Source of the DNA: Arthrobacter sp. zg-Y238 | GTDB taxonomy: Bacteria; Actinomycetota; Actinomycetes; Actinomycetales; Micrococcaceae | Reading direction: 5' to 3' | Assembly: GCF_024385525.1 (NCBI RefSeq) | Contig: NZ_JANFLU010000012.1 | Coordinates: 62,001 to 126,000 of the forward strand | DNA length: 64,000 nucleotides | Part shown: positions 25,753-48,669 of the stretch, piece after piece | Position numbering within the stretch: position 1 is the stretch's first letter | How the letters are laid out: every line of letters begins with the position of its first letter | Notes under the pieces: model-generated | Databases searched by the model: none | Told to the model about the DNA's origin: nothing | What the model saw: only the letters and a program-made list of their open reading frames with translations | Program-made: the position numbers and the translations under genes

Positions 25753-26052
25753 GTGATCTTCAAAGCTGTTGGCGACGTACGCCCCTACCCTGACCATGGA
25801 TACGTAACACCGAAGGACTGGGCAGCGGTACCTCCCCGGCAGGTTCGCCTGGATGAACTGGTGACCACGAAGGCCACACTGGACCTCGGCGCGCTGCTGG
25901 CCGAGGATTCCACCTTTTTCGGAGACCTGTTCCCGCACGTCGTCCAATGGAAGGGCACCATGTACCTTGAAGACGGATTGCACCGGGCCGTAAGGACGGC
26001 GTTGCACCAGCGGACCATACTGCACGCACGCGTGCTGGTCCTCGATGACTAA
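25753..26052 (+). CDS. Small conserved actinobacterial protein (annotated VapB-like in relatives)
   Basis: A 99-residue soluble protein beginning VIFKAVGDVRPYPDHG, with PPRQVRLDELVTTKATLDLG and WKGTMYLEDGLHRAVRTALH. Homologues in Arthrobacter are, as I recall, often labelled VapB-family antitoxin, but I see no ribbon-helix-helix or AbrB motif. No PIN-domain toxin is adjacent, so that label is doubtful. Its conserved partner is the LytR_C protein, whose start overlaps its last eight bases. GTG 25753 has TACTCT six bases upstream, indicating a leaderless operon. Confidence 0.8.
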   Translation: MIFKAVGDVRPYPDHGYVTPKDWAAVPPRQVRLDELVTTKATLDLGALLAEDSTFFGDLFPHVVQWKGTMYLEDGLHRAVRTALHQRTILHARVLVLDD

Positions 26053-26726: not shown

Positions 26727-27470
26727 GTGGGCCTGCCGCACAGTGAAACACGCGGGTTTGGAGACCAGCAGGAACTGGCGGAGGTGCAGCTGGCCGTCCG
26801 GCGGCTGGACGCAGTGGACCTTGGGACCGCGGCCAGCCTGGGAACCGCCGTACAGACACGGGCGAAGGGATTCCATCACGAGGAGGACCGCCGTCGTTTC
26901 CTTGCCGGGCGGGTGGCCGCCCGGTCCCTGGTGGCCGGGTACCTGCAGGCACCTGAGGACACGGTGACCGCGATGGCGCACTGTCCTGACTGTTTGCACG
27001 GCAATGACGGAAGCCACGGGGAGCCGCGCTATTTCATTGCGGGCAGGCCCATCCCGCTCAAAGTCAGTTTCAGCCGTTCCGGGAACTGGCTCGCGGCGGC
27101 GCTCGCACGGACGCGTGTGGGGGTGGATCTGGAAGACTCCGCCGCAGGGGCGTTCGCTGATACGGCGGTGGAGGACGTGATGGCCACCGGTGCGGAAAGG
27201 GCGGCCATCGCCGCCGTCGCGGTTCCGGACCGCCCCCGCCTGCGGGCGCAGATCTGGGTACGGAAGGAGGCCCTGCTGAAGGCGTCAGGCCAAGGGCTCC
27301 GGGTTGATCCGCGCAGTGTGGAAACGGATTCCGACGAACGGGCGCGGGAAAAGGGCCTCGGGTTCAGCGGGCTGCGCGCGTACGACGTCGAGCCGGAGCA
27401 GTTCGGACTGCCAGCCTCCTTTGCGTTGTCCTACGCCGTGGACGCGAGGGAGGCGGACGGGTTGGCTTAG
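26727..27470 (+). CDS. 4'-phosphopantetheinyl transferase (Sfp type)
   Basis: A 247-residue PPTase that moves phosphopantetheine from CoA to a carrier-protein serine. The signatures are VGVDLED (magnesium ligands) and IWVRKEALLKASGQGL (W-x-x-K-E-A), both typical of the Sfp/Gsp group that primes NRPS and PKS carriers. GTG 26727 starts four bases after the LytR_C stop. The NRPS-like gene with a carrier Ser lies 1.6 kb away, so this is its likely activating enzyme. It is convergent with, and overlaps by four bases, the first acyltransferase-like membrane gene. Confidence 0.9.
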   Translation: MGLPHSETRGFGDQQELAEVQLAVRRLDAVDLGTAASLGTAVQTRAKGFHHEEDRRRFLAGRVAARSLVAGYLQAPEDTVTAMAHCPDCLHGNDGSHGEPRYFIAGRPIPLKVSFSRSGNWLAAALARTRVGVDLEDSAAGAFADTAVEDVMATGAERAAIAAVAVPDRPRLRAQIWVRKEALLKASGQGLRVDPRSVETDSDERAREKGLGFSGLRAYDVEPEQFGLPASFALSYAVDAREADGLA

Positions 27471-28651
27471 GGGCCCCGGTGGGCGGAACGGGTGTCCGGG
27501 TGCCGCCGAAGGACGGACTCCCGCGCGGCAGCGGCGCCCCGGGAGACGAGTTTCTCCAACGGCCCCTGCTTTCTCGCAAGCTGCCAAATCACGGCGAAGA
27601 TTATGAATACGGTGATTTGCAGCCAGAGGGAGAATTCCGGGAGGTCGACCAGTGCTCCGGTGCCGAGGAAAAGCAGATGGGCGCAGTAGAGGGTAAGCGT
27701 CATCCGGCCGGGCGCGGACAGGAGGAGCAACGCCTTGCCTGCAAAGCGTGAGACCAGCAGCATGGCCCCGAGCACGCCGGCGGCAACTCCTATGGTGTGC
27801 AGCAGATCGAACGGTGTGGTGGTGTGCGGCGCGGCAATGGACAGCCACCACCAAGAGCTGGTGGGAAGGTACTCTTCGGTGCCCCACACCAGGATTTCCT
27901 GGAGATCACCTGTTCTTAGATCCGGCTCCGATGCCAGCAACCGGTCAAACCCGGGACCGGCAAGCAGCAGCTGGGAGCCGAGCCAGGCAGCCGCGGCAAG
28001 TGCGGAGCCGAACCCCAGCAACCCCAGCTGCACGCTGGGCCGATCCAGGCTCATCCTGCCGATAGCGAGCCCGGCGGCAATGTAGGCCAGCCACGGAATG
28101 GCGGGGTAGGTTCCGGTGAGCAAAAGCTGACTCAGGAAGACACCGGGTTCGGTGAGCACGGTAGTGAACGTGGGGTCGAACCCGGGCTCGGGGAGGTAAT
28201 CCCGCAGGCCCTGCATCAGGATAGGTCCCAGCAGTGCGAATCCCGCGGCGGCGACGAGCAGGGTCCGGGTCGATACTCCCAGCAGCGGGATTGCCAGCAG
28301 GAACATGGCGCCGTAGTACGCCAGGATGATGAAGGCGTCCATGTCCACGTAGGCGATGGCCAAGCCTAGGGTGGTGACCAGTCCTGCCCTTGCAGCCACG
28401 CTCCACCGGGCCGCAACCAGGAAATGTCCGCCTTCCGTCCTTGCCCTACGGGTAGTGAAGGCCAACGTAACCCCGGCCAGAAGAGCAAAGAGCGCTGCCG
28501 CCTTGCCGGCGAACAGCAGCCACGTCAGGGTCGGCTCGCCGTCTTCGCTAACGGCAGACAGGACATGGATCGCCATCATCCCGAAAAGCGCCAGCCCCCG
28601 CGCAGCGTCCACTCCGGACAGCCTGGGTCTCGATGTAGCTACTGAAGACAT
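27467..28651 (-). CDS. DUF1624/DUF418 acyltransferase-like membrane protein, copy 1
   Basis: A 394-residue membrane protein with about 10 hydrophobic segments. The opening SGVDAARGLALFGMMAIHVL is the heparan-alpha-glucosaminide N-acetyltransferase-like (DUF1624) signature; TLYCAHLLFLGTGAL and a closing basic segment resemble DUF418. These proteins are thought to move acyl groups across the membrane to an outer acceptor. It is clearly paralogous to the gene at 34075-35433 (shared PTLTWLLFAG, ALFALLAG, LLLTGTYPAIPWLAY-like segments). It diverges from the poly-lysine-synthetase-like gene across a 388-base region. Confidence 0.85.
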   Translation of the reverse strand: MSSVATSRPRLSGVDAARGLALFGMMAIHVLSAVSEDGEPTLTWLLFAGKAAALFALLAGVTLAFTTRRARTEGGHFLVAARWSVAARAGLVTTLGLAIAYVDMDAFIILAYYGAMFLLAIPLLGVSTRTLLVAAAGFALLGPILMQGLRDYLPEPGFDPTFTTVLTEPGVFLSQLLLTGTYPAIPWLAYIAAGLAIGRMSLDRPSVQLGLLGFGSALAAAAWLGSQLLLAGPGFDRLLASEPDLRTGDLQEILVWGTEEYLPTSSWWWLSIAAPHTTTPFDLLHTIGVAAGVLGAMLLVSRFAGKALLLLSAPGRMTLTLYCAHLLFLGTGALVDLPEFSLWLQITVFIIFAVIWQLARKQGPLEKLVSRGAAAARESVLRRHPDTRSAHRGP

Positions 28652-29039
28652 GCTCTAGATCCCATCGGCAGGTGTTATCCAGCGCCCTGTCGAGTGCCGG
28701 GGGTGGACCACACACAACCAACCGCTTCTGTCCGTAACCTATCGGAAACCTAAGCGCAGGCTGTGAAGCACCGGGCGCCATTTCTACCTGCGCCCTGCTT
28801 GCCTGTGCTGACGCGAGACGCCCGCGGAACGAATTCTAAGTTGAGTAGTGATCCGAGTAGCCGCGGAGGCGGGGGAGTAATTAACCCCGTACCGGATGGA
28901 CTCCTGCAGCTCTGGGGTACTCATGTGAATCCGCTGTGAATTTTCTAGGCTTCCCTGCATCGCCCCGGCCGTCGCCGGGCTCAGGTTGTGGTCCCTCGAC
29001 CACGGATATGAGATGTACCAGCAGGGAGAACTGCTTTCT
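28652..29039. other. Divergent control region of the poly-amino-acid locus
   Basis: About 390 bases between the acyltransferase-like gene and the NRPS-like gene, without a supportable ORF. It contains GGGGAGTAATTAACCCC near 28873 (an imperfect GGGG/CCCC-flanked AT core) and a TAGGCT -10-like element near 28948. It also contains a perfect GTGGTC-CCTC-GACCAC hairpin at 28988-29003, just ahead of the ribosome-binding site. Confidence 0.5.
28988..29003 (+). promoter_or_regulatory. GTGGTC/GACCAC inverted repeat upstream of the NRPS-like gene
   Basis: Six-base perfect arms with a CCTC loop stand 36 bases before ATG 29040. This could be an operator or a 5'-leader hairpin. Confidence 0.4.
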
Positions 29040-32000
29040 ATGAACACGCCCGAAAACCCGCAAGACGTGGCGGCACGACCATCAACCATCCAGCACTCTG
29101 CCGCCCTCGGCAGCAAGACCGCACCACCCCTTCCCGAAAGGGCACCATCAGCAGCAAGCCAGAATCCCGTTCCCGCGGAATTGGCGGTCTTTCACGGCGG
29201 CCGCACACCTGAGCAGCGCACCCTGGTCGACATCATCACCGAAACGGTCTCCGCCTATCCAGGCGCGCCCGCCATCGATGACGGAACCGTTTCCCTGAGC
29301 TACGCCGAACTTGAACTGCGGGTGCAGGCGCTCGCAAGGCGGCTGTGGGCCGGCGGCATCGGTGCCGGTGACCGGGTAGGAATCTATGTCCCCTCCGGAT
29401 CCGTGGACCTGTATATCGCCATTCTCGGTGTGTTGTACTCCGGGGCCGCCTATGTTCCGGTGGACACGGACGAACCGGCCGGCCGGGCGGAGACGGTGTG
29501 GGCCGAAGGCGGAGTCTGCGCGGTTATCGAAGCAGGGCTGGAGCTGAACCTGCTCCAGGGCGTCCCCAGCGGCGGGCACAGCCCCCAGCCGCACCCCGAG
29601 GACGATGCGTGGATCATCTTCACCTCCGGTTCCACGGGCAAGCCCAAGGGCGTGGCCGTGACCCACCGCTCCGCGGCTGCCCTGGTGGATGCCGAATCCT
29701 CGCTTTACTGCGTCAACGCCCCGCTTTCCCCGGGGGACCGGGTCCTGGCCGGCCTGTCGGTCAGTTTTGACGCCTCATGTGAGGAGATGTGGCTGGCATG
29801 GGCCCACGGTGCGTGCCTGGTTCCGGCCCCTCGTTCCGTGGTGCGGTCCGGAGCGGATCTCGGCCCCTGGCTGGTCGAACGGAGAATCACTGCCGTTTCA
29901 ACAGTGCCCACCCTTGCCGCGCACTGGTCCACCGAGACCCTTGACCGCGTGCGGCTGCTGATTTTCGGCGGTGAAGCCTGCCCGGAGGAGCTGGTCCGGC
30001 GGCTGGCTGCCCCCGGGCGGGAAGTCTGGAACACCTACGGCCCCACGGAAACCACGGTTATTGCCTGCGGTGCGCTTCTGGACGGACAGTCCACCGTCCG
30101 GATCGGACTGCCGCTGAACGGGTGGAGCCTCGCCGTCATCGGCGAAGAGGGGAACCCCGTGCGCTGGGGGGAAGTGGGTGAACTGGTCATCGGCGGTGTA
30201 GGTGTTTCGCGGTACCTCGACCCGGAGAAGGACGCCGAAAAATTCACCCCGCTTCCGGCCCTCGGGTGGGAACGGGCTTACTACAGCGGAGACCACGTCC
30301 GCGCAGACCAGGAAGGCCTCGTCTTTTTGGGGCGCGTGGATGAGCAGATCAAACTGGGCGGCCGGCGGATTGAGCTCGGCGAGATTGACGACGCCCTGAG
30401 CCGGCTGCCGGGCGTGGCCGCGGCTTCCGCCGCCGTCCATTCCACCCAGTCCGGAAACCGGGTGCTGGCTGGATATCTGGTCCCGGCGGCCGGGGCCACC
30501 CTGGACCTTGGCGCCGCACGGGCCCAGCTGGCACAGAACCTGCCGGCATCCATCGTCCCGTCGCTGGGAATCGTCGATGAGCTGCCGATGAAGGCCTCGG
30601 GGAAAGTGGACCGCAAGGCCCTGCCCTGGCCATTGCCGGTTAGGGAAACGCCGACCGACGTCCGGGTGGAGCTCAATGCCGATCTGCGTTGGCTGGGCCA
30701 GCGGTGGACCGATCTGCTGGGACCGCTGCCGTTGACCGAGGAAAGCGATTTCTTTGCCCTGGGCGGAGCGAGCCTGGCTGCAGCCCAATTGGTCTCTGCA
30801 CTGCGGGAACGTTATCCGAAGGTCTCGGTTGCCGATATCTACGAGCATCCGACGCTGAGCACGATGTCCGACCATTTGACGTCACTGCGCGACTCAACCC
30901 TGGACGTCCGTGAAACCCCCGAGTCGCCCTGGTGGCTGGGGCTGGTCCAGGCACCGCTGATCGTGGCCCTCTACGGGATCACGGGCCTGCGGTACGTCAC
31001 CGGTATCGCCATCGTGTGCATGGTGATGTTCCATGTGGTGGGCAGCCCCTGGACCCCGGATCCACCAGTAGTTCCCACCCTCGCGGCCTGGCTGGCCCTG
31101 TACAGCCTGCCGGCACGGATGGTGGCCGCGGTGGTGTCGAGCAGGTTGCTGCTCTTGGGAATAGGCCCCGGCATTTATCGGCGCGGCGGCAGCACCCACC
31201 TGAGGCTGTGGGCAGCGGAACGGATAGTGACGTACTGCAAGCTCGAGCCCATCATGGGATCCCCGATCGGCATTTGGTATGCCCGCCGGCTGGGCTGCAA
31301 CATCGGTGAAGGCGTGCACCTTGACGCCATGCCGCCCGTTACCGGTTTTGCGTCGATAGGCGACCGGTCCTCCATCGAATATGAAGTAGACCTGGCGGGC
31401 CACTGGATTGAAGGCGGACAACTCCACATCGGCCGCGTGCAGATCGGCGAAGACGTGCGGATCGGTGCACGGTCCACGCTGATGGGCGGGGCGAAAGTGG
31501 GCCGCGGAGCCGAAACGGAACCGGGGACCCTGGTTTCCGGGGAGATTCCCGCAAATGAACTGTGGGCGGGATCCCAGATGCGGAAGACCGGTAGCGCCGG
31601 AGCGGGGTGGCCCACGGAAGCAGCACCGACGTCGGAATCCCGCAGAGTACGGTTGCTCTACCCGGCTTCCCTGGGTGGCATCGCGTTGTTGAACCTCCTT
31701 TCCATAGCGCCCGGATCCGCCCTGATGCTGTGGCTGCTGAACGGGGTTTCCTCCTTCACGGACGCCTTGTGGATCCTGGCTGCCTGGGCACCGGTTTTCG
31801 TGGTGATTTCCATGCTGATGTTCCTCGCACTCACCGCCGCCGTGGTCCGCGGTACCGCCCGTCTAATGCCCGAAGGCATGCACCCGGCGGACGGCATGAC
31901 AGGCTGGGCGTCCTGGTTGAGCAACGTGATGCTTAGCCGGTCGCTCATTACGATGTATCCGATCTACGCCAGCGTGCTCACGCCGGTGTGGACGCGGCTC

Positions 32001-33095
32001 CTGGGAGCGAAGGTCGGGCGCCACGTGGAGATTTCCACCATGGAAACCGTCCCGCACCTGACACGGCTGGAGGACCGGACCTTCCTGGCGGACCACTCCA
32101 TGGTGTCCGCGCGGCGAGTGCGCCAGGGGTGGCTGCACCTCGGCCAGGCGAGTGTCGCGGAACAGTCCTTTGTGGGGAATTCGGCGATCGTCGGGCCGGA
32201 CACGCACGTTCCGGATAACTCCCTGATTGCGGTGCTTTCCTCAGTCCCCAAGAACATGCCGGCCGGTACTTCCTGGTTCGGGCGTCCGGCGGTGGAGCTT
32301 CCGCGGCCGGTGCAGGTGGGGGACACCGCACGGACCTACGATCCTCCCCGACGACTGCTGGTTGCCCGAAGCGCGGTTGAAGCATGCAGGATCCTGCCGG
32401 CGGTGATCACGGCCTGGCTGGCCCTGCTGACCGTCTGGGCATTGGCCGGACTGTACGACGCCTTCGGGTTCCTCACGGCCGTCCTGTGGTCCGGCCCGGT
32501 CCTCCTTCTGAGCGGGATCGCAGCAGCGCTCATTGCCGTCATGGCGAAGTGGCTGCTGGTGGGCCGTTTCGAGGCTTCGGAGCACCCGCTGTGGAGTTCG
32601 TTTGTCTGGCGGAATGAGCTGGCGGACGTGTTTTCGGAATCCCTGGCCGTTCCCGGCCTGGTGCGGATGAGTCTGGGCACCCCGATGCTCAACGCCTGGC
32701 TGCGCTGGATGGGTGCACGGATCGGCCGCAGCGTTTGGTGCGAAACGTGGTGGTTGCCGGAATTCGACCTGATACAGGTGGGCGACGGAGCGAGCATCAA
32801 CCGCGGCACGGTACTGCAGACGCACCTTTTCCATGACCGGATCATGCGCCTGGACGAAGTAACCCTGGGCGACGGTTCCACGCTGGGACCCAACAGCATC
32901 GTGCTGCCGGGCAGTGCCATCGAAGAGGGCGGCACCGTCGGAGGCTGCTCGTTGGTGATGCGCGGGGAAAGCGTCCCCGTGAACAGCGCCTGGTGCGGCA
33001 ACCCCTTGGCGCATTGGGGCCAGAGCCGCCCGATGGAACGCCGTGCCCGTCACCGCAAGTCGATTGAATACAAAACTGTAGGAGCAGGACTATGA
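29040..33095 (+). CDS. Epsilon-poly-L-lysine-synthetase-like membrane NRPS (Pls/PosA family)
   Basis: A 1351-residue single-module synthetase with the Pls architecture; Streptomyces Pls is 1319 residues. Adenylation domain, about 45-535: FTSGSTGKPKG (A3), NTYGPTETT (A5), YYSGDHVR (A7), MKASGKVDRKAL (A10, Lys522). Carrier domain, about 550-625: DFFALGGASLAAAQL with Ser578 as phosphopantetheine site. The C-terminal half has membrane segments near 634-668, 871-940 and 1117-1175, alternating with three left-handed beta-helix domains (about 768-850, 990-1090, 1225-1340). There is no condensation or thioesterase domain, as in Pls. Pocket residues read D244 A245 E248 S287 I308 G310 T332 V340 I341 K522, close to a lysine code. 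ATG 29040 has GGGAGA upstream. Lysine as substrate is inference. Confidence 0.9.
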   Translation: MNTPENPQDVAARPSTIQHSAALGSKTAPPLPERAPSAASQNPVPAELAVFHGGRTPEQRTLVDIITETVSAYPGAPAIDDGTVSLSYAELELRVQALARRLWAGGIGAGDRVGIYVPSGSVDLYIAILGVLYSGAAYVPVDTDEPAGRAETVWAEGGVCAVIEAGLELNLLQGVPSGGHSPQPHPEDDAWIIFTSGSTGKPKGVAVTHRSAAALVDAESSLYCVNAPLSPGDRVLAGLSVSFDASCEEMWLAWAHGACLVPAPRSVVRSGADLGPWLVERRITAVSTVPTLAAHWSTETLDRVRLLIFGGEACPEELVRRLAAPGREVWNTYGPTETTVIACGALLDGQSTVRIGLPLNGWSLAVIGEEGNPVRWGEVGELVIGGVGVSRYLDPEKDAEKFTPLPALGWERAYYSGDHVRADQEGLVFLGRVDEQIKLGGRRIELGEIDDALSRLPGVAAASAAVHSTQSGNRVLAGYLVPAAGATLDLGAARAQLAQNLPASIVPSLGIVDELPMKASGKVDRKALPWPLPVRETPTDVRVELNADLRWLGQRWTDLLGPLPLTEESDFFALGGASLAAAQLVSALRERYPKVSVADIYEHPTLSTMSDHLTSLRDSTLDVRETPESPWWLGLVQAPLIVALYGITGLRYVTGIAIVCMVMFHVVGSPWTPDPPVVPTLAAWLALYSLPARMVAAVVSSRLLLLGIGPGIYRRGGSTHLRLWAAERIVTYCKLEPIMGSPIGIWYARRLGCNIGEGVHLDAMPPVTGFASIGDRSSIEYEVDLAGHWIEGGQLHIGRVQIGEDVRIGARSTLMGGAKVGRGAETEPGTLVSGEIPANELWAGSQMRKTGSAGAGWPTEAAPTSESRRVRLLYPASLGGIALLNLLSIAPGSALMLWLLNGVSSFTDALWILAAWAPVFVVISMLMFLALTAAVVRGTARLMPEGMHPADGMTGWASWLSNVMLSRSLITMYPIYASVLTPVWTRLLGAKVGRHVEISTMETVPHLTRLEDRTFLADHSMVSARRVRQGWLHLGQASVAEQSFVGNSAIVGPDTHVPDNSLIAVLSSVPKNMPAGTSWFGRPAVELPRPVQVGDTARTYDPPRRLLVARSAVEACRILPAVITAWLALLTVWALAGLYDAFGFLTAVLWSGPVLLLSGIAAALIAVMAKWLLVGRFEASEHPLWSSFVWRNELADVFSESLAVPGLVRMSLGTPMLNAWLRWMGARIGRSVWCETWWLPEFDLIQVGDGASINRGTVLQTHLFHDRIMRLDEVTLGDGSTLGPNSIVLPGSAIEEGGTVGGCSLVMRGESVPVNSAWCGNPLAHWGQSRPMERRARHRKSIEYKTVGAGL

Positions 33096-34060
33096 GTACA
33101 ACTACGGGCAACACAGGAACAACGGTCTCCCGACAATTCGGCACCGTGCTCACCGCAATGGTCACGCCCATGGACGAGCGCGGCCAATTGGATCAGGCCG
33201 GCGCCGAGGAGCTGGCCCGATGGCTGCTGCGGACCGGTTGGAACGACGGTGTGGTGGTCAACGGCACCACCGGGGAGTCCTTCGCTACCTCGGACTGGGA
33301 AAAAGCGTCGATGATCCATTCGGCGAAACGGGTCACCGCGGGCACCGAACGGCGGGTTATCGCCGGGGTGGGCTCCACCGACACGCGGCACAGCATCGAG
33401 CTGGCCCGGGCTGCGGCAGAGCAGAAGGCAGACGGGCTGCTGGTGGTTGCCCCCTACTATTCACGCCCCACGCAAAAAGGCCTGCTGCGCCACTTCGAGG
33501 CCATTGCGGACAGCACCGACCTGCCGGTGATGCTTTACGACATCCCCGCCCGCACCGGCGTCGCAATTGCCCCCGAGACCTTGGTGGCGGCCGGCCGGCA
33601 TCCGAATATCGTGGCGGTGAAGGACGCCAAGGGAGATCTCGCCTCCTCATCCTGGGTCATGAAGCACAGCGAGCTGGTCTATTACTCGGGTGATGACGCA
33701 CTGAATCTGCCCCTGATGTCCGTTGGTGCTGTCGGCGTCGTCTCGGTGGTTGGACATGTCGCCGCTAACCGGCTGCGTGCCCTGACAGTCGCGTACCGGC
33801 AGGGCCGGGTGGATGACGCGCTGCGGATTCACCGTGACCTGCTGCCGATCTACACCGGTATGTTCCGGTGCCCCGGCGCAGCATCGGCCAAGGCGGCGCT
33901 TCGGAAACTGGGGCTGCCCGCCGGCCCCGTCAGGGGACCGCTGACCGACCTGAGCGAAGAGGAGACGGACCTGCTTGTGGCAGACCTCACCGCAGCGGGG
34001 TTGCCGACTACGCTTGCGTCCGGCCCCGCAGTCCCTGAAGCTCTGGCACGGGTGTATTGA
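33092..34060 (+). CDS. dapA: 4-hydroxy-tetrahydrodipicolinate synthase
   Basis: A 322-residue class I aldolase that condenses pyruvate with aspartate semialdehyde, the committed step to diaminopimelate and lysine. NGTTGES holds the Thr pair, Tyr149 in MLYDIPARTG the proton relay, and Lys177 in VAVKDAKGD the Schiff-base residue, so it looks active. Its ATG overlaps the NRPS-like stop (ATGA), giving translational coupling. Such placement in a biosynthetic operon suggests dedicated precursor supply, perhaps with altered lysine feedback. Whether a second housekeeping dapA exists lies outside the window. Confidence 0.94.
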   Translation: MSTTTGNTGTTVSRQFGTVLTAMVTPMDERGQLDQAGAEELARWLLRTGWNDGVVVNGTTGESFATSDWEKASMIHSAKRVTAGTERRVIAGVGSTDTRHSIELARAAAEQKADGLLVVAPYYSRPTQKGLLRHFEAIADSTDLPVMLYDIPARTGVAIAPETLVAAGRHPNIVAVKDAKGDLASSSWVMKHSELVYYSGDDALNLPLMSVGAVGVVSVVGHVAANRLRALTVAYRQGRVDDALRIHRDLLPIYTGMFRCPGAASAKAALRKLGLPAGPVRGPLTDLSEEETDLLVADLTAAGLPTTLASGPAVPEALARVY

Positions 34061-34074
34061 GCAAAGGGGGAAGC

Positions 34075-35433
34075 ATGAGCGGGTCGTCTCAGGCAGCGGT
34101 GGGCAAACGGCGAGTGACCGGTGTCGATGCTGCCCGGGGAGCGGCGTTGATTGCCATGATGGCGATCCACATCCTGCCCGCCTGGAATGAGGAGTTCGCC
34201 CCCACGCTCACCTGGCTTCTGTTCGCCGGCCGGGGAGCCGCGCTTTTTGCATTGCTCGCCGGGATATCGCTGGCTTTTATGTCCGGCGGCAAGCACCCTC
34301 CGCGGGGACGGAAGATGGCTGCCGCCCGTTATGGACTTGCGGTGCGCGCTGCCCTCATCACCGTCATCGGGCTGTTTCTCGGCTACCTCGCCGTCAACGC
34401 ACAGGTGATCCTCGTCTATTACGGCGTGATGTTCCTGCTCGCCCTTCCGCTGCTCGGGCTGCGTGTGCGGACCCTGCTCGTTCTTGCTGCGGGTATTGCC
34501 GCCGCCGCCCCTGTCCTGATGCAGGCCACCAGGGATTGGTTGCCGGACATGGGCGGGGTGGAACCCAACTTCTCCACGCTCGTTGAAGCCCCCGGCGGTG
34601 TCATTGGCCAGGTCCTTCTCTCCGGTACGTATCCCGCATTGCCTTGGATGGCGTACGTCTGCGTCGGACTGGCTATCGGCCGGCTGGACCTGGCCGAGCG
34701 GGCGGTGCAGATTCGGCTGCTGGTGGCCGGCGTCGCCCTTGCCCTTGCAACAGCCGTCCTTTCCGCCCTCATCCTCGGCCCCATCGGCGGGCGGCAACAG
34801 CTGGTGGACGCGACGTCGGAATGGACTTCTGCCCCGGAGGAAATCGTTGGGGACATCCTGATCTGGGGGCCGGACCCGGTGCTGCCGACGGATTCCTGGT
34901 GGTGGCTTGCCTCCTTGGCTCCCTATTCCAGTACGCCGCTGGTGCTGGCCAACACCATCGGCACCTCTGCCGCGTTCCTGGGGGTGCTGCTGCTGCTGGG
35001 CGGCGCCCGCGGGCGGTTCCTGTGGCCCTTGGCTCTGCTGGGAAAGATGACCTTGACCCTGTACTCCCTGCACCTGATCCTCTTGGCCACCGGCCTGCTG
35101 GCGGACCAGCCAGTGCCGGCAATGATTCTCCAGTTGGTCATCATTTCGGCCTTCGCCTCCATCTGGCTGCGGTATGCGGCCCAGGGGCCGCTGGAAAAGG
35201 GAGTTGCCGAAGCCTCGAAGTGGGCGCGGAACAAATACCTGGCGCGCCCGGGCGATCCGCGGGAGAGTCGGACGTCGTCGATAAATCCAGCGGCTGCGGG
35301 AACGACGACAGAGCCGCCTGCCCCGTCGTCGTCGGAACCGCGCGGAGTGGCGTACCCGCCCGCCCCGTCCTACCCGCCAGCTCCGCCGGTGCCGGAAGGC
35401 AGGGCCCGCCACCGAGCCCGTCAGCGCAGTTGA
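34075..35433 (+). CDS. DUF1624/DUF418 acyltransferase-like membrane protein, copy 2
   Basis: A 452-residue membrane protein with about 10 hydrophobic segments, starting at ATG 34075 after AAAGGGGGAAG. VTGVDAARGAALIAMMAIHI and PTLTWLLFAGRGAALFALLA match copy 1 at 27467-28651 almost segment for segment. An extra 65-residue Pro/Ser/Arg-rich C-terminal tail (YPPAPSYPPAPPVPE) is absent from copy 1. It lies 14 bases after dapA. In this setting it could acylate, release or export the polymer; none of this is shown by sequence alone. Confidence 0.86.
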   Translation: MSGSSQAAVGKRRVTGVDAARGAALIAMMAIHILPAWNEEFAPTLTWLLFAGRGAALFALLAGISLAFMSGGKHPPRGRKMAAARYGLAVRAALITVIGLFLGYLAVNAQVILVYYGVMFLLALPLLGLRVRTLLVLAAGIAAAAPVLMQATRDWLPDMGGVEPNFSTLVEAPGGVIGQVLLSGTYPALPWMAYVCVGLAIGRLDLAERAVQIRLLVAGVALALATAVLSALILGPIGGRQQLVDATSEWTSAPEEIVGDILIWGPDPVLPTDSWWWLASLAPYSSTPLVLANTIGTSAAFLGVLLLLGGARGRFLWPLALLGKMTLTLYSLHLILLATGLLADQPVPAMILQLVIISAFASIWLRYAAQGPLEKGVAEASKWARNKYLARPGDPRESRTSSINPAAAGTTTEPPAPSSSEPRGVAYPPAPSYPPAPPVPEGRARHRARQRS

Positions 35434-36578
35434 TGCTGTTGACTCATGCACGCCGTCTCGGGCTTGCGGCAGCTGCGGCGCTGCTTGCTGCCCTTTTAAT
35501 GCCTGCTCTGCCCGCGGCCGGCGCCGAGCAGGAGCACGACCCCTGTGCGAGGCTCAACGCGGGGGAAGTCCGCTACTCCGTCCGTGAAGCCAAGCGCGTC
35601 ACTTTCGCGACGGCGGAAAAATACGGGGCTACGGAAACCCGCCTCACCGGCTGCGTTTTCGAGGACGGGGCCTATGTACAGGAATGGCAGTCCTGGGGCT
35701 TCAGCGGCCGCAACGGCTTTGCACCCCCGGGCAGCATGTGGGAGAACACCTTGTATTCACCGACCGGGTCCTTCAGCTTCACCGAGGCGCTCGGCCGCAG
35801 CAACCCGGGCACGGAACTGGAATATCACGAGCTGAAACCCTCCTCCCGGTGGGGCGGGAAGCACGGGGAGAACTATAACCAGTACTTCGAAGGGGAAGGC
35901 GAAGGCGCAGACGAGAACCTTTGGCGGTACATGGAGCAGGGCCTCTATGAGCAGGCAGCCGTGATCAACTGGAACCGCCAGCCGGATATGCCGACCCGGC
36001 AGGGTGCCTCCTTCGCCATCTTCTTCCATGCCGGGTACGCGCCAACGTGGGGATGCATTTCCACGGACCTGGCCACGGTCACACGGTTGCTGCGCGGGGC
36101 CGTCCCGGGCGACCGCATCGTTATGGGGACCGTGGAGGACGTTTTCACAGCGTCCACTGCCGCTTCCGAAGCTGCCGCTGCCGCTGCGGCCAGGGCAGAA
36201 GAGAAGGCAGCGGCAGTCGAGCAAAGGCTGGAGACGCTGACTCACGTGCTGATGACCCTCGGCGTGCTGGCGGCTCTGGGGCTGCTGATTCGGCTCGCGT
36301 TCAAGCGGGCCGGGCGCCAACGGAAACCGCGGCGCTCTCCGCCGAGCGCTGACTCATTCGCCAAGACGGCGGCGTCGGACCGTCAGGCTGCGGCAAGGCC
36401 ACGGGCCCATACGGGGTGGTCCCCGCCGGCGGAAATCCCGCCGGCAGGCGCGTCCCTGCCGCGCGACCGACCGTTGGACCCGTCGCTCGATTCGTCGCTG
36501 GATTCGCCGTTGGATTCGCCGCTGGACAGTGAGCGTGAAAGGAAACCGCGGGAGGACGTTTCTTCGCGTAAGCCCTGA
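35433..36578 (+). CDS. Secreted L,D-transpeptidase-like protein with C-terminal membrane anchor
   Basis: A 381-residue protein. The signal peptide LGLAAAAALLAALLMPALPA is followed by an extracytoplasmic domain ending FFHAGYAPTWGCISTDLATV. This matches the YkuD active-site pattern H-x-G...S/T-x-GC, here with Thr-Trp-Gly-Cys. A coiled-coil-like Ala/Glu stretch, one membrane segment (LMTLGVLAALGLLIRLAF) and a long disordered tail with LDSP repeats follow. Its ATG overlaps the preceding stop (TGATG). Such enzymes form or exchange 3-3 peptidoglycan cross-links or attach amines to stem peptides, so attachment of an amine-rich polymer to the wall is an attractive but untested idea. Confidence 0.8.
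   Translation: MLLTHARRLGLAAAAALLAALLMPALPAAGAEQEHDPCARLNAGEVRYSVREAKRVTFATAEKYGATETRLTGCVFEDGAYVQEWQSWGFSGRNGFAPPGSMWENTLYSPTGSFSFTEALGRSNPGTELEYHELKPSSRWGGKHGENYNQYFEGEGEGADENLWRYMEQGLYEQAAVINWNRQPDMPTRQGASFAIFFHAGYAPTWGCISTDLATVTRLLRGAVPGDRIVMGTVEDVFTASTAASEAAAAAAARAEEKAAAVEQRLETLTHVLMTLGVLAALGLLIRLAFKRAGRQRKPRRSPPSADSFAKTAASDRQAAARPRAHTGWSPPAEIPPAGASLPRDRPLDPSLDSSLDSPLDSPLDSERERKPREDVSSRKP
36482..36530 (+). repeat. Degenerate 12-bp tandem repeat coding LDSP/LDSS
   Basis: Four successive 12-base units (variants of TCGCCGCTGGAT) encode the repeated tetrapeptide Leu-Asp-Ser-Pro/Ser in the C-terminal tail of the L,D-transpeptidase-like protein. Confidence 0.7.
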
Positions 36579-36596
36579 TGCGTTAGCGGTGTCGCT

Positions 36597-36602
36597 TAGA
36601 GT
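36597..36602 (+). promoter_or_regulatory. Putative -10 (TAGAGT) for small leaderless gene
   Basis: TAGAGT ends six bases before GTG 36609, supporting that small frame as a transcribed gene. Confidence 0.5.
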
Positions 36603-36608
36603 TTAAGG

Positions 36609-36809
36609 GTGAACCAGACACCTGCCGCCGAGGGGACAGCCTGGACGGACCCCGACGACGCAGCGGATGAGGGCAGGTTGCTGTACGAGGAACGCGCGGC
36701 CCTCCTCCCGGGGTTGTGGATGCCTCCGGCACCCGACTGGGAGGACCTGTCCGAAACGGACCGGCAGCGGTGGCGCCAATACGCCCAGGACGCGGAAAAC
36801 GACCTATAA
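36609..36809 (+). CDS. Small acidic hypothetical protein, 66 aa
   Basis: A 66-residue soluble protein rich in Asp, Glu and Trp (WMPPAPDWEDLSETDRQRWR). No family is recognised. Evidence for reality is the GTG with TAGAGT six bases upstream, an unbroken frame with normal actinobacterial third-position GC, and its fit between neighbours. It precedes the M1 peptidase by 57 bases and may share its mRNA. Confidence 0.6.
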   Translation: MNQTPAAEGTAWTDPDDAADEGRLLYEERAALLPGLWMPPAPDWEDLSETDRQRWRQYAQDAENDL

Positions 36810-36866
36810 GGCCGGTTCCGCACGCTACCCGTGGCGAAATCGCCGCGCCGTGTCAGGATGTCGGCC

Positions 36867-38219
36867 ATGTGGCAGACCGGATCCCACCGCCAACATCAGC
36901 ACCAGACGCCCGACCCGTATACGCCCGCGTCCGGCTCCACGGAGCTGAGCATCAACGAATATGACCTGACACTTGATTACGACGTCGGCCTCAACCGGCT
37001 GAAGGGGCAGGCGCGCCTTGCCGGCTCGGCCCTGGTCGACATTGAACAGCTCACCCTGGACCTGGACCGGCCGATACGGGTGGAAGAAGTGCTGCTTTGG
37101 TGCGCCGGAACTCCGGTGGACGTCCGTTCCTTCCGGCAGCGACGCGGCAAGCTGGCGATAACGCCCAGTCGGGACCTGAAGGCCGGTGACAGCTTTCGGC
37201 TGAGCATCCGGTACCGGGGCAAGCCACGCGCTGGCAACGGCCTGTGGGGCGATATCGGCTGGGAGGAATTGGCCGACGGCGCCCTCGTTGCGGGTCAGCC
37301 GACGGGGGCTCCGTCCTGGTTTCCCTGCAACGATCTGCCAGCGGACAAAGCGCGTTATCGGATCAGCGTGACGGTGGAGTCCGGCTACCGGGTGACGTGC
37401 AACGGAGAGCTGGTCTCCCACGAAGACCGCCGCGGCCGGGAGACCTGGGTCTTCGAACAGCCCGAGCCGATGTCTACCTACCTGGCGACGGTTCAGATTG
37501 GCCGGTACGAATGCCTGGATCTGCCGGGCGACGTACCGCAGTCCGTCGTCGCACCCCCGTCCCTGGCCGACCGGGCGCGGGCCGCGCTGTCCCGGCAGGA
37601 CGCCATGATGACGCTGTTTGCCTCCCGGTTCGGGCCCTATCCCTTCGGCCGGTACACGGTGGTGGTGACCGATGATGAGCTGGAAATCCCTTTGGAGGCG
37701 CAGTCGGTGTCCGTCTTCGGACGCAACCATCTGGGGCCGGCCTCGGCTTCGCTGGTGGCCCACGAACTCGCGCATCAGTGGTTCGGCAACTCGGTTACGG
37801 CCGGCAAGTGGCGGGATATCTGGCTGCACGAGGGCTTCGCAACCTACGCAGAGTGGATGTGGGCAGAGGCGGCCGACGGCGTCAGCAGCGACCAGCGGGC
37901 CGCGGTGGATCTGGAGTGGCTGCAGCATCAGCGGCAGGACCTGCAGTTGGCCGATCCCGGGCCGGCGGCCATGTTCGACGAACGGGTTTACCGGCGCGGA
38001 GCGTTGACCCTGCACATCCTGCGGCGCAGCGCCGGCGACGGGATCTTTTTCGAGCTGCTGCAGGAGTGGACGCAGAAGTACCGGCACAGTTGTGCCGGTA
38101 CCCGCGACTTTTTAGACCTCGTCGACAAGGCATATGCCTCCGCCGGTGTTTCGGCCAACGGCCTGCTGGGGCCGTGGTTGTTCGAGCCCTCGGTCCCGGA
38201 GGTTCCTTTCCGGGCCTAG
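36867..38219 (+). CDS. M1-family zinc aminopeptidase
   Basis: A 450-residue M1 metallopeptidase, shorter than PepN because the C-terminal helical domain is lacking. Zinc site: HELAHQWFGNSVT followed by the distal Glu in WLHEGFATYAEW. The GxMEN exopeptidase loop is not conserved; ELEIPLEAQSVSVF stands in its place, as in other short actinobacterial members. RVYRRGALTLHILRR supplies the catalytic-Tyr region. No signal peptide is seen, so it is probably cytoplasmic. Starts at 36831, 36858 and 36867 are possible; 36867 has AGGA eight bases upstream. Confidence 0.9.
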   Translation: MWQTGSHRQHQHQTPDPYTPASGSTELSINEYDLTLDYDVGLNRLKGQARLAGSALVDIEQLTLDLDRPIRVEEVLLWCAGTPVDVRSFRQRRGKLAITPSRDLKAGDSFRLSIRYRGKPRAGNGLWGDIGWEELADGALVAGQPTGAPSWFPCNDLPADKARYRISVTVESGYRVTCNGELVSHEDRRGRETWVFEQPEPMSTYLATVQIGRYECLDLPGDVPQSVVAPPSLADRARAALSRQDAMMTLFASRFGPYPFGRYTVVVTDDELEIPLEAQSVSVFGRNHLGPASASLVAHELAHQWFGNSVTAGKWRDIWLHEGFATYAEWMWAEAADGVSSDQRAAVDLEWLQHQRQDLQLADPGPAAMFDERVYRRGALTLHILRRSAGDGIFFELLQEWTQKYRHSCAGTRDFLDLVDKAYASAGVSANGLLGPWLFEPSVPEVPFRA

Positions 38220-44754: not shown

Positions 44755-47700
44755 TTAGCGGCAACCACCGTTGTTTTCCGTGTAGGTGTCCAGGCGGTGA
44801 ACGAAAGCCGCCATGGCTTCACGGGAAACCTTTTCACCCGGATGGTAGCTGCTGTCCGGGTAACCCGTAGACACGCCGGACGCCTTCATCCAGGAGATCT
44901 CCCGGTGGAACTGGTCGTTAGTCGGAACGTCCGTGAAGGATGCCGTGCCCGGAGCCTGGTAGCCCTTGGCAGCGTCGATCCCGCACTTGTCCCCGGCGAA
45001 CCGGTTCATGAAGGCAGCCATCGCGTCACGGTTGACCGGTGATACCGGGCGGAAGCTACCGTCCGGGTAACCGGTGCTGATGCCGGATTCGGCCATCCAC
45101 GAGATTTCCTTGTAGAACTGGGTGGTCGGAGTGACGTCCGTGAACGGCGACACGTCCGGCGCGTCGTAGTTCGGCGAACCCGCGAGACGGTACAGGAACG
45201 CTGCCATTGCGTCGCGGTTGATGGAACCGGCAGGACGGTAGGTGCCGTCTGCATAGCCGGTGGTCAGCCCCTGGTCAGCCATCCAGTTGATGTCCGATTC
45301 GAACATGGTGCCCGGAACATCCGGGAACCGAAGCGGAGCAACTTCCACCTGCGTGACCTGGTCCTTGACGCCCTGGGCGTTGTGGTGGTGCAGGAACAGC
45401 GCCTTGGCGTCCGTGGTGCTGGCCTGACGGTTGACCGTGAGGGTTGCTCCGTCCTCCTCCGCGTAGACGAAGGCAGCAGGGCTGGCGCTCTGGAACCAAA
45501 CGGCCGGCTGGGTGAGGTTGAACGGAATCCACGCGGTGGTGTCAACCGGAACCTCCTGGCCGGACTCATCCACGTTGATGGCGTTGGAGGTGGAGATGCG
45601 GTACTGGATCGGCTGTGACTTCGTGAGATCCAGGCCAAGGGAACCGGCCGGAATCGGCAGCGTCATCACGTTGGTGTCGAAGACGTTGCTGTCGACGTCG
45701 CCCACGGTACCGTTCACCGGGTAGGAGCCCGGGAGCGGGGTACCAAAAACGAGCTCTCCGTCGGCATCGACGCCCGTCACCGGAACAATGCGGAAGACGC
45801 TCTGGTCGAGTCCCGTGATCCGGGTGGTGATGGCCACGAAGTTGGGTACACCGTCGGAGTTGGTATCCAACTCGACCAGGATCGTGCTGTTGCCGCTGAT
45901 CGTGGCCCAGTTTTCCCAGGTGCTCAATCCGATGTTCAGGACAGCCGCGTTCAGGTTTGCGCTCCCTGCAGCAGCCAGTGCCGGAACGTTGGACGAAGCA
46001 CCGACGTTGCGCAGGTCAAGCCCGTAGAGGGAATCAAGGTCAAGATCGCTCCTACGCGGGCTTTCCTCGCCCAGCACCAGCGGCGTCATCATCGAAACGT
46101 AAGCCTCGCTGCCTTCACCCTGGTCCAGTCCGCGACCGGTGAAGGTGACGGAAGTGGCCAGGTCCGTTGCGCCGGCAAACGAGATCTTGGAGCTTGCCTG
46201 CATGTCGGACGTCGGCTTGGGTGCGGAGTAGACCGGCACCCGCAGGGCCGGCGATCCTTCGCTCGTCAGCTGGATGCGGCCCGATTCTTCGGCGATGTAC
46301 TGCCGCGCGATGGCGCCAGTACCCTGGGTCCGCTCGGCGGCCGGGTCGATCCGCTTCACCAGTGCGGTGGGATCCGCAATGCTGAGCGTGACCGGCACGG
46401 TGACAGTAGCGTTGGCAGGAACCTGCACGGGTGCAGTGCTGACGCTGATGCTGACGCCGGGCATGTCGGTTGCGGGCAGGTACTCGGGCGTGTACGTCTT
46501 CGGTGAATCGCCCTTGTTCTCAACCGTGATGGTGCGCGTGATCTCAACCGGATCCGCTCCGACTTCCAAGACGCCGAAGTTCATGGACGTCAGACGCGGG
46601 TTCTCTGCGTCGTAGGCCAGGACCTTTGTGCTCAGGGCGTCCAGGGCGTCAACGCGTCCGGATCCAACGCGGTTCGGCGCATGAACTACGCCTTCCCCGG
46701 CGAATACGTCGTGGGTCGCCGTGTTCATGATGATCGACTTGACCTCGTACGGGTTGTAATCCGTCGCGCCCACAACGAGTGCGGCAATACCCGCTACGTT
46801 CGGGGCAGCCATCGAGGTGCCGGACTTGATGGAGGCGCCGGTGCCGGTGCCAACCTGGGCGGACTTGATCTGCGTTCCCGGGGCGGCGACGTCGGGCTTG
46901 ATCACGCCGTTGGATCCGTGGACGCCGCGCGAGGAGCTGGCGTTCAGGGTGTCCAGCGCGCCGGACTGTCCGGTCACGCTGCCCACCAGCTCGGGAGCGA
47001 GCTGAATCTGCAGGGTCCCGGCCTCGGCGGCCGGCCGCAGCTGCTCGCTGGATTCGCGGGTGAACTGGAAGCCGGGGATCGCAGCGTTTCCGGCAATGCC
47101 GGCCGAGAAGCCGTTCAAAGTGGAGTCAAGGACGACGCCGGCGTAGCCTGCGGTTGCGGCGTTGTTCCAGCGGACGGCCGAACCGCATTCGCGGGTGGCC
47201 GCGTCCTCATCCCAGGTCAACCAGACCCATTTGCCCGCATTGGCGCCCGCGGGTTCCAGTGCGGCGCAACCGTCGGAGTTGCCGCCCTGCGGCCCCATCA
47301 CCACGGTTCCCGTAAGAGCAGCCTCGTCGGCGGAGGCGTAGTCGAAGCTGGAGGTGTACTGGCCCTTGGCGGTTCCTGCAGTCGGAGCCAGGATGCGTGC
47401 AGCGTCCAGGGTGGTCTGGGACCCGACACTGTTCGCCACGGTAAGTGCAGTCTCTGCACTGCCGGGGGAGCCGCCGATGTCGTAGATGTCGCCGGAGTTG
47501 CCCGACGACACGACCGAGAGGATGCCCTGGGCCGTGAGTGCGTTGACAATGTCGTTTTCGGGATCGTCATAGGCGGGGAAAGCGGAACCCAGGGACATGT
47601 TCACAACCTGGGCGCGGTCGCTGAAGTCGCCGTCGTCGTTCGGGTCCAGGACGTAGTCCAGGGCCTGGCCGACAACCTCGGAGGAGCCCACGCAACCGAA

Positions 47701-48669
47701 GACGCGGACGCTGACGAGCTTTGCGTTCGGCGCGGTGCCCGGGCCGATGCCCATGGCGTTCACCTGGTCGCCGGTGAGCGTGGAGTAGTCCCCGCTGAAT
47801 GTGGTTCCGTCAGCGTTGGTGCCGTAACCCGCCGCGGTTCCCGCGACGTGGGTGCCGTGGCTCCCGCAGTCCAGGGGGTTGGCATCCGGGACGGGGATGG
47901 GGCTGTACGTGGCGGGGTCCGAGGGATCTGCGTTGTAGGCGTCACCGACGAGGTCCCAGCCGCCCGCGAACTTCTCCGGGTCGTAAAGGCCTGAGTCTGC
48001 TGCCGGAATAGTGGGCGAAGCCTGCGCCGTCTCGAACGCTTCCTGGGTGCCCGGGCCGCCGAAGTCTGAGTGCGTGTAGTCCAGGCCGGTGTCGAGGACG
48101 GCAATGGTGACGCCCTCACCGGTCTGGGAACGCTGCACCCAGGAATCCACGGCACGGACATCGATATCCCCGCCCTTGTTGTCAAAGGTCTTGGGAACGA
48201 TGCCGGTGATCTTAACGACGTCGCCGCGTGCTGCCAGCGCCCTGATTGCCTCAGCGTCGCCGTTGATGGCAACACCCGGGATGCTGTTGGTGGTGGTGTA
48301 AAGAATGGACGAGGAAGCGGCCTGTGCAACTTCTTCGGCCTTAGTCTCGATGCCGCTGCGGATTTCCTGCACCTGGCCGGACTTGTTCAGCGGTTCAGCG
48401 AGTCCTTCGAGTACTTCGACGGGCTGGGTCTGTTCATAGGCGCCTTTGCCGCTGAACTGTACGAAAACCGAGACCGGGCCCTGCTTGGTTTTGAGATCCG
48501 GTGAGACCTTGAAATCAGGCGTAACCGTTTCGATTCCCCGAATGGTCGGTTCCTCGTTTGCGGTCCCCTCAGTGGCCGCAGCCGGTGCCCACATGCTGGA
48601 GGCGAGGGCAAGGCCGGCGACTGTTGCCAGCGCTGCCTTTCCTGCTCTCCGGTGGTTTGGATTGTTCAT
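44755..48669 (-). CDS. Secreted subtilisin-like (S8) protease with PA domain and three SLH repeats
   Basis: A 1304-residue exported protease. The signal peptide is about residues 1-33 (KAALATVAGLALASSMWAPA). An I9-type propeptide precedes the catalytic domain: Asp193 in IAVLDTGLDYTHSD, His271 in CGSHGTHVAGTAAGYG, Ser619 in SGTSMAAPNVAG. A PA-type insertion lies at about 430-560. Fibronectin-like beta domains follow. From about 1110 to the end come three repeats of the form FPDVPGTMFESDINWMADQG then GYADGTYRPAG, which are S-layer-homology-like wall-binding modules. ATG 48669 has GGGAGAAG upstream. It is divergent from a glycosyltransferase and a CsaB-like gene, which suggests a shared anchoring system. 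Confidence 0.94.
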   Translation of the reverse strand: MNNPNHRRAGKAALATVAGLALASSMWAPAAATEGTANEEPTIRGIETVTPDFKVSPDLKTKQGPVSVFVQFSGKGAYEQTQPVEVLEGLAEPLNKSGQVQEIRSGIETKAEEVAQAASSSILYTTTNSIPGVAINGDAEAIRALAARGDVVKITGIVPKTFDNKGGDIDVRAVDSWVQRSQTGEGVTIAVLDTGLDYTHSDFGGPGTQEAFETAQASPTIPAADSGLYDPEKFAGGWDLVGDAYNADPSDPATYSPIPVPDANPLDCGSHGTHVAGTAAGYGTNADGTTFSGDYSTLTGDQVNAMGIGPGTAPNAKLVSVRVFGCVGSSEVVGQALDYVLDPNDDGDFSDRAQVVNMSLGSAFPAYDDPENDIVNALTAQGILSVVSSGNSGDIYDIGGSPGSAETALTVANSVGSQTTLDAARILAPTAGTAKGQYTSSFDYASADEAALTGTVVMGPQGGNSDGCAALEPAGANAGKWVWLTWDEDAATRECGSAVRWNNAATAGYAGVVLDSTLNGFSAGIAGNAAIPGFQFTRESSEQLRPAAEAGTLQIQLAPELVGSVTGQSGALDTLNASSSRGVHGSNGVIKPDVAAPGTQIKSAQVGTGTGASIKSGTSMAAPNVAGIAALVVGATDYNPYEVKSIIMNTATHDVFAGEGVVHAPNRVGSGRVDALDALSTKVLAYDAENPRLTSMNFGVLEVGADPVEITRTITVENKGDSPKTYTPEYLPATDMPGVSISVSTAPVQVPANATVTVPVTLSIADPTALVKRIDPAAERTQGTGAIARQYIAEESGRIQLTSEGSPALRVPVYSAPKPTSDMQASSKISFAGATDLATSVTFTGRGLDQGEGSEAYVSMMTPLVLGEESPRRSDLDLDSLYGLDLRNVGASSNVPALAAAGSANLNAAVLNIGLSTWENWATISGNSTILVELDTNSDGVPNFVAITTRITGLDQSVFRIVPVTGVDADGELVFGTPLPGSYPVNGTVGDVDSNVFDTNVMTLPIPAGSLGLDLTKSQPIQYRISTSNAINVDESGQEVPVDTTAWIPFNLTQPAVWFQSASPAAFVYAEEDGATLTVNRQASTTDAKALFLHHHNAQGVKDQVTQVEVAPLRFPDVPGTMFESDINWMADQGLTTGYADGTYRPAGSINRDAMAAFLYRLAGSPNYDAPDVSPFTDVTPTTQFYKEISWMAESGISTGYPDGSFRPVSPVNRDAMAAFMNRFAGDKCGIDAAKGYQAPGTASFTDVPTNDQFHREISWMKASGVSTGYPDSSYHPGEKVSREAMAAFVHRLDTYTENNGGCR

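What the first reader, a model, noticed from the sequence alone, without database searches (positions are those of the whole stretch)
26727..36578. Candidate epsilon-poly-lysine (or related cationic homopolymer) locus in a Micrococcaceae-like genome
A Pls-type NRPS (adenylation, carrier Ser578, three membrane-embedded beta-helix domains, no thioesterase) is coupled to dapA, an acyltransferase-like membrane protein and an L,D-transpeptidase-like protein, with a PPTase 1.6 kb upstream. Pls architecture is established in Streptomyces. The combination with precursor enzyme, membrane acyltransferase pair and wall enzyme is what looks new. It suggests a polymer made at the membrane and then modified or attached outside.
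Basis: partly seen in the sequence, partly recalled or inferred. Interest (0 to 1): 0.88.

Follow-up and report, generated by a model that had tools for sequence, protein, structure and literature searches.

The report
Polylysine synthetase paired with membrane acetyltransferases
This Arthrobacter-type bacterium carries a seven-gene unit predicted to build epsilon-poly-lysine at its membrane, and it belongs to a branch of such enzymes whose usual partner is a membrane protein built like human lysosomal N-acetyltransferase, so the polymer may be chemically capped, and perhaps tied to the wall, once outside the cell.

The parts
26727..27470 (+). Sfp-type 4'-phosphopantetheinyl transferase (PPT), expected to load the Pls carrier domain
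   Evidence: PF01648 44.9 bits, cut-off 25; found in all 12 pls+ genomes and as one weak hit (G004) among 17 pls- genomes of the genus; one other ACPS-family gene in the genome, at C5
27467..28651 (-). TmAT1 (called HGS1 in the scripts): HGSNAT-type transmembrane acyltransferase, divergent from pls
   Evidence: PF07786 51 bits, cut-off 22; one clade of 12 divergent copies, 12 of 12 with DxxRx10H
28652..29039 (.). intergenic region between TmAT1 and pls, expected to hold divergent promoters
   Evidence: gene layout; aligned start region fits ATG 29040
29040..33095 (+). pls: epsilon-poly-L-lysine synthetase, 1351 aa (longest ORF 28986-33095)
   Evidence: TIGR02353 577.9 bits, cut-off 423.1; carrier Ser578
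29241..30623 (+). adenylation domain, pocket D-A-E-S-I-G-T-V-I-K
   Evidence: 7wew, 614 bits; code
30690..30878 (+). carrier (thiolation) domain, GGASLAA
   Evidence: PF00550 42.1 bits; motif
30978..33005 (+). Pls/PosA terminal domain: membrane regions with hexapeptide-repeat domains
   Evidence: TIGR02353 residues 665-1340; hydropathy
33092..34060 (+). dapA: 4-hydroxy-tetrahydrodipicolinate synthase, first committed step towards lysine; ATG overlaps the pls stop
   Evidence: TIGR00674 253 bits, cut-off 206; catalytic T,T,Y,Y,R,K present; two further PF00701 genes in the genome, the stronger at C16
34057..35433 (+). TmAT2 (HGS2): HGSNAT-type transmembrane acyltransferase, TTG 34057 or ATG 34075
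35433..36578 (+). L,D-transpeptidase-like protein: N-terminal signal-like segment, YkuD-fold domain with His199 and Cys208, C-terminal hydrophobic segment
36858..38219 (+). M1-family zinc aminopeptidase (HELAH), of the family that sits behind pls in other actinobacteria (PldII-like)
   Evidence: PF01433, PF17900; HExxH; same 12 of 29 genomes as full-length Pls

Best explanation
A seven-gene unit makes epsilon-poly-L-lysine and processes it outside the membrane. The PPTase loads the Pls carrier; DapA raises lysine supply; Pls adenylates L-lysine and its membrane domain joins residues through the epsilon-amine and exports the chain. One or both HGSNAT-type TmATs then pass acyl groups, most likely acetyl from cytosolic acetyl-CoA, across the membrane onto free amines of the polymer. 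This neutralises or tunes it, taking the place that the PldII-type peptidase holds in other actinobacteria. The M1 peptidase trims or recycles chains. The L,D-transpeptidase-like enzyme works on the wall the polymer passes through. Shown here: gene content, lysine-type pocket, intact DapA catalytic set, HGSNAT and YkuD folds (predicted models), operon overlap, inheritance as a block, lineage-wide pls-TmAT pairing. Inferred: the product, acylation of the polymer, each enzyme's substrate.
Against: I know of no product from a Pls of this clade. TmAT relatives are common without pls: 220 of 295 family genomes have one at E 1e-6, including a third copy beside the housekeeping dapA in this genome, and the usual TmAT acceptors are carbohydrates (PMC12423673, passage), so the acceptor could be a wall glycan. 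MAG contig L070 has neither TmAT nor M1. In L276 the TmAT lies on the other side of pls. dapA is missing in 12 of 39 and LDT in 15 of 39 TmAT-type loci. The window M1 protein shows no hydrophobic segment, whereas PldII is reported outside the membrane (PMC9223678, passage).
Confidence: 0.5

Rival explanations
1. Plain epsilon-poly-lysine antibiotic cluster plus self-protection: the polymer stays unmodified and cationic, and the TmATs and LDT-like enzyme alter the producer's own wall glycans and peptide bridges so that the polycation binds less, while the M1 peptidase degrades what remains.
For: PldII is described as degrading epsilon-PL and as postulated self-protection (PMC8117764, PMC9223678); TmAT relatives act mostly on carbohydrates (PMC12423673, passage); the LDT-like protein has relatives with LGFP repeats.
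Against: Self-protection genes need not lie in the pls operon in nearly every genome of the clade; 10 of 39 loci are pls-TmAT with no other block gene found in the flanks held, up to about 9 kb; the closest fold is an N-acetyltransferase.
Confidence: 0.3
2. Wall-anchored polymer: the LDT-like enzyme joins an amine of the polylysine chain to peptidoglycan stem peptides, as E. coli LDTs join the lysine of Braun's lipoprotein (recalled), giving a coat rather than a secreted antibiotic.
For: YkuD fold with signal-like segment, C-terminal hydrophobic segment and conserved His and Cys; in the genus it was found only with pls: 9 of 9 pls+ and 0 of 15 pls- genomes sampled.
Against: Absent in 15 of 39 TmAT-type loci; relatives stand alone away from pls; the motif spacing is short and best fold matches include cell-shape proteins Csd6 and Pgp2, which I recall as hydrolases, so it may cut rather than join.
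Confidence: 0.15
3. Pls makes a different polymer (for example of ornithine or a beta-amino acid) and dapA is unrelated to supply.
For: One pocket residue differs from 7wew (Ile for Val), and PosA shows that the family makes other polymers (PMC10522769).
Against: The pocket has the Ala that marks lysine enzymes, not the Met of PosA (PMC10522769); all 119 readable rows have DAESIGT[VI][VI]K; no aminomutase among the block proteins scanned.
Confidence: 0.04
4. Chance neighbourhood of unrelated genes.
For: TmAT and LDT families also occur elsewhere in these genomes.
Against: Block is present or absent as a unit with empty sites, full-length Pls and M1 in identical sets of 12 of 29 genomes, close or overlapping genes.
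Confidence: 0.01

Closest known systems
epsilon-poly-L-lysine synthetase Pls of Streptomyces albulus with PldII
   Same: A-T-terminal membrane domain architecture, lysine pocket 9 of 10 against 7wew, an M1-type peptidase in the unit
   Different: Peptidase is not directly behind pls; dapA, two TmATs, LDT-like gene and PPTase are added; the window lies in another part of the Pls tree than the Streptomyces rows (S. albulus itself not in it)
Pls of Corynebacterium variabile and predicted Pls of Arthrobacter, Brevibacterium and others (PMC8117764)
   Same: Lysine pocket; same group of bacteria
   Different: That paper describes the C. variabile gene with a peptidase gene; TmAT, dapA and LDT-like partners are not mentioned in the parts read (1-3 of 4)
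PosA, delta-poly-L-ornithine synthetase of Acinetobacter baumannii (PMC10522769)
   Same: Same protein family
   Different: Pocket Met instead of Ala; single-gene operon
Human HGSNAT and the TmAT superfamily (PMC11357348, PMC12423673)
   Different: 15% identity; carries the AT3-type His where HGSNAT has Asn; no extra luminal domain (452 aa); acceptor unknown
YkuD-family L,D-transpeptidases
   Different: Only 8 residues between His199 and Cys208, shorter than the classical motif (recalled); no Pfam YkuD hit for the window protein

Membership tests
Pls / epsilon-poly-L-lysine synthetase | A and T domains followed by Pls/PosA terminal domain, no C or TE domain | tested here: met
Pls / epsilon-poly-L-lysine synthetase | lysine-type substrate pocket | tested here: met
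   DAESIGTVIK; 9 of 10 as 7wew, read from the alignment
Pls / epsilon-poly-L-lysine synthetase | peptidase gene translationally coupled to pls | tested here: not met
   M1 gene is in the unit but starts 3.8 kb after the pls stop; dapA is coupled instead
Pls / epsilon-poly-L-lysine synthetase | product is epsilon-linked poly-L-lysine | not testable with these tools
   needs expression and mass spectrometry
TmAT superfamily (HGSNAT/YeiB branch) | HGSNAT fold | tested here: met
TmAT superfamily (HGSNAT/YeiB branch) | DxxR in TM1 and a His or Asn further along | tested here: met
   DxxRx10H in 39 of 39 downstream and 12 of 12 divergent copies
TmAT superfamily (HGSNAT/YeiB branch) | acyl-CoA-dependent transfer to an amine outside the membrane | not testable with these tools
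   biochemistry needed
YkuD L,D-transpeptidase | YkuD fold | tested here: met
YkuD L,D-transpeptidase | PF03734 above gathering score | tested here: not met
   window protein has no hit; 2 of 8 family members scanned pass, L185 and L189
YkuD L,D-transpeptidase | classical His to Cys spacing of the active-site motif (recalled) | tested here: not met
   H199 and C208 with 8 residues between them
DHDPS (DapA) | catalytic Thr, Thr, Tyr, Tyr, Arg, Lys | tested here: met
   TTYYRK in the window and in 25 of 27 pls-linked rows (residue list recalled)
PldII-type epsilon-PL peptidase | M1 zinc motif, same family as pls-adjacent peptidases | tested here: met
   HELAH; 42-52% identity to the M1 proteins of loci without TmAT
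PldII-type epsilon-PL peptidase | located outside the membrane | tested here: inconclusive
   no hydrophobic segment by simple hydropathy
PldII-type epsilon-PL peptidase | cuts epsilon-poly-lysine | not testable with these tools
   enzyme assay needed; the S. albulus PldII sequence itself was not compared

The most novel reading that the evidence does not exclude
Bacteria of this Pls clade make a new class of natural polymer: N-acetylated (or otherwise N-acylated) epsilon-poly-lysine, built by an NRPS, capped from outside by an HGSNAT-type enzyme, and in Arthrobacter joined to peptidoglycan by a dedicated L,D-transpeptidase, as a nonribosomal wall polymer rather than an antibiotic.
Probability: 0.13. 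Interest if true: 0.88.

Novelty: new variant of a known kind. Interest (0 to 1): 0.6.

Why it matters
Epsilon-poly-lysine is an industrial food preservative, yet its natural role is poorly understood. If a whole lineage of synthetases is paired with an N-acyltransferase, its product would escape assays that look for free cationic polymer. The pairing predicts acylated isopeptide polymers with tunable charge, gives bacterial HGSNAT relatives a testable substrate, and offers a defined seven-gene unit with natural empty sites for genetics. (That C. variabile gave no epsilon-PL in culture, PMC8117764, is no evidence here: its gene was described with a peptidase and its Pls protein was not detected in those cells.)

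Tried and rejected
Non-lysine substrate: rejected on the pocket code. Recent duplication of the housekeeping dapA-TmAT pair as origin of the cluster pair: the housekeeping TmATs form their own clade and the two DapA groups separate, although support for the pls DapA group is modest (77). Horizontal island by composition: GC is 64.7-67.2% across the block; no tRNA in the window. LDT substrate from its stand-alone relatives: their neighbours gave no hint. Plasmids: 47 records with a Pls terminal domain, highest listed identity 48.6%, 30 of 47 listed, no neighbourhood read. Promoter conservation upstream of pls: nothing convincing. PDB sequence search with the TmAT profile gave one chance hit, with the LDT profile only two weak PS1 chains.

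More divergent Pls hits were not examined except L233 and L236, which came in through their TmAT. From 121 Pls rows, 2 fragments without a code (one is L073) and 7 repeats were removed, leaving 112. In one search, L264 is the same place as L156. In the TmAT tree starts are approximate; 6 of 17 stand-alone copies and 2 of 2 beside the 28% Pls lack DxxRx10H as called, several because the called start is late; L240 is a very long branch. Gene calls come from a home-made GC-frame caller. In one search the start nearest the upstream stop was chosen, which favours overlap. The Pls trees are FastTree, drawn with a midpoint root, with some long branches (L116, L139, L244, L276-L278).

Full report
What is there. 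The window carries a compact block at 26727-38219. In order: an Sfp-type phosphopantetheinyl transferase (PF01648), a divergent HGSNAT-type membrane protein (TmAT1), the synthetase pls, dapA, a second HGSNAT-type protein (TmAT2), an L,D-transpeptidase-like protein and an M1 peptidase. pls, dapA, TmAT2 and the LDT-like gene have overlapping stop and start codons: ATGA at 33092-33095, TTG 34057 before the dapA stop, and TGATG at 35431-35435. The genome belongs to the same genus as Arthrobacter pullicola: a contig of genome G012 has the same length as an A. pullicola record (inference).

The synthetase. It scores 577.9 bits against TIGR02353 (cut-off 423.1), and Pfam finds no condensation or thioesterase domain. 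Its A domain's best match among PDB sequences is epsilon-poly-L-lysine synthase 7wew, 614 bits, which PMC10522769 uses as the epsilon-PL synthetase structure. The ten pocket residues are DAESIGTVIK, against DAESIGTVVK read from the 7wew alignment. Over 121 rows (window plus 120 loci) the codes are DAESIGTVVK 78, DAESIGTVIK 39, DAESIGTIIK 2, and 2 fragments without a code. PosA, which uses ornithine, has Met where lysine enzymes have Ala (PMC10522769, parts 1-3 of 8 and passages). I take L-lysine as the substrate with about 95% confidence.

The unit and its borders. In 29 genomes of the genus, full-length Pls (68% identity or more) is in 12; the other 17 have only the general adenylating-enzyme matches. 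The M1 peptidase is in exactly the same 12 at E 1e-20, and the PPTase in those 12 plus one weak hit in G004. The LDT-like protein was found in 9 of 24 genus genomes sampled, all 9 pls+ and none of 15 pls-; the other three pls+ genomes have it at their pls locus. In four pls-negative sister genomes (L217-L220) the upstream flank gene CEI is directly followed by the downstream DsbA-like gene, so the seven genes are missing as one piece. In two more distant pls- genomes the flanks are rearranged (L221, L222).

Two lineages of Pls. A tree of 112 Pls rows splits 40 to 72 (FastTree, unrooted). On the window's side, 39 of 40 have a TmAT in the locus; the exception is L070, a MAG contig that begins 391 bases before its match. 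On the other side none of 72 has a TmAT, not even at E 1e-5 (a few loci have short flanks), and 64 have an M1 peptidase. Among the 39, 27 also have dapA, 24 an LDT-like gene, 19 an M1 gene and 14 a PPTase, and 10 have the TmAT alone, within the flanks held. In 38 loci (the 39 less the window) the gap from pls to the next gene is -29 to +49 bases, with a possible overlapping start in 24 (the nearest start was chosen). Two checks on loci not used in that tree: 29 loci from an order-wide search, the best matches of 119 positive genomes among 396, have M1 downstream in 27 and TmAT in 2 (one, L264, repeats L156), and those two fall on the TmAT side. Both enlarged trees need one change between TmAT and M1-only partners. 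The TmAT side contains Arthrobacter, Zafaria, Paeniglutamicibacter, Nesterenkonia, Citricoccus, Kocuria and some Corynebacterium.

What is known and what is new. Pls in coryneform bacteria including Arthrobacter, with lysine pockets, was reported in 2021, and the C. variabile gene made epsilon-PL in S. coelicolor (PMC8117764, parts 1-3 of 4). I found the TmAT partnership in none of the papers listed by the searches, of which I opened six (passages or parts only; the rest seen as listings). Most subscription papers are not held, so this is not proof of novelty. I file the locus as a new variant of the Pls kind.

Confidence. Pls makes a lysine isopeptide polymer: about 0.9. The seven genes are one functional unit: about 0.9. 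A TmAT acts on the polymer: about 0.5. The LDT-like enzyme attaches the polymer to the wall: about 0.15. All product statements are inference.

Noticed in passing
L214:6898-9117 (G000:C16), also L215, L216, L241: The housekeeping dapA has a divergent HGSNAT-type gene directly beside it, also in pls-negative relatives and another genus; dapA-TmAT adjacency thus occurs in two separate places.
   Followed up: partly
L064 (Paeniglutamicibacter antarcticus W2), same contig as L178: Two Pls synthetases (63% and 49% identical to the window's; the second not placed in a tree) lie head to head with the LDT-like gene between them and an M1 gene behind the second.
   Followed up: no
L233 and L236, about 1-5.8 kb: A TmAT sits beside a 28%-identical Pls homologue with pocket code DFECLSVVTK; in L233 the TmAT has Asn in place of the motif His, as in human HGSNAT.
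   Followed up: partly
L181-L196: Stand-alone relatives of the LDT-like protein, some with LGFP or FG-GAP repeats, a group of likely wall-associated YkuD proteins.
   Followed up: partly
window 44755-48594 (-): Large subtilase (S8) with three S-layer homology domains near the block.
   Followed up: no
window 25861-26052 (+): Small VapB-like protein (PF23719) next to the CEI-like gene, 94-100% identical in the six pls-negative genus loci inspected.
   Followed up: no
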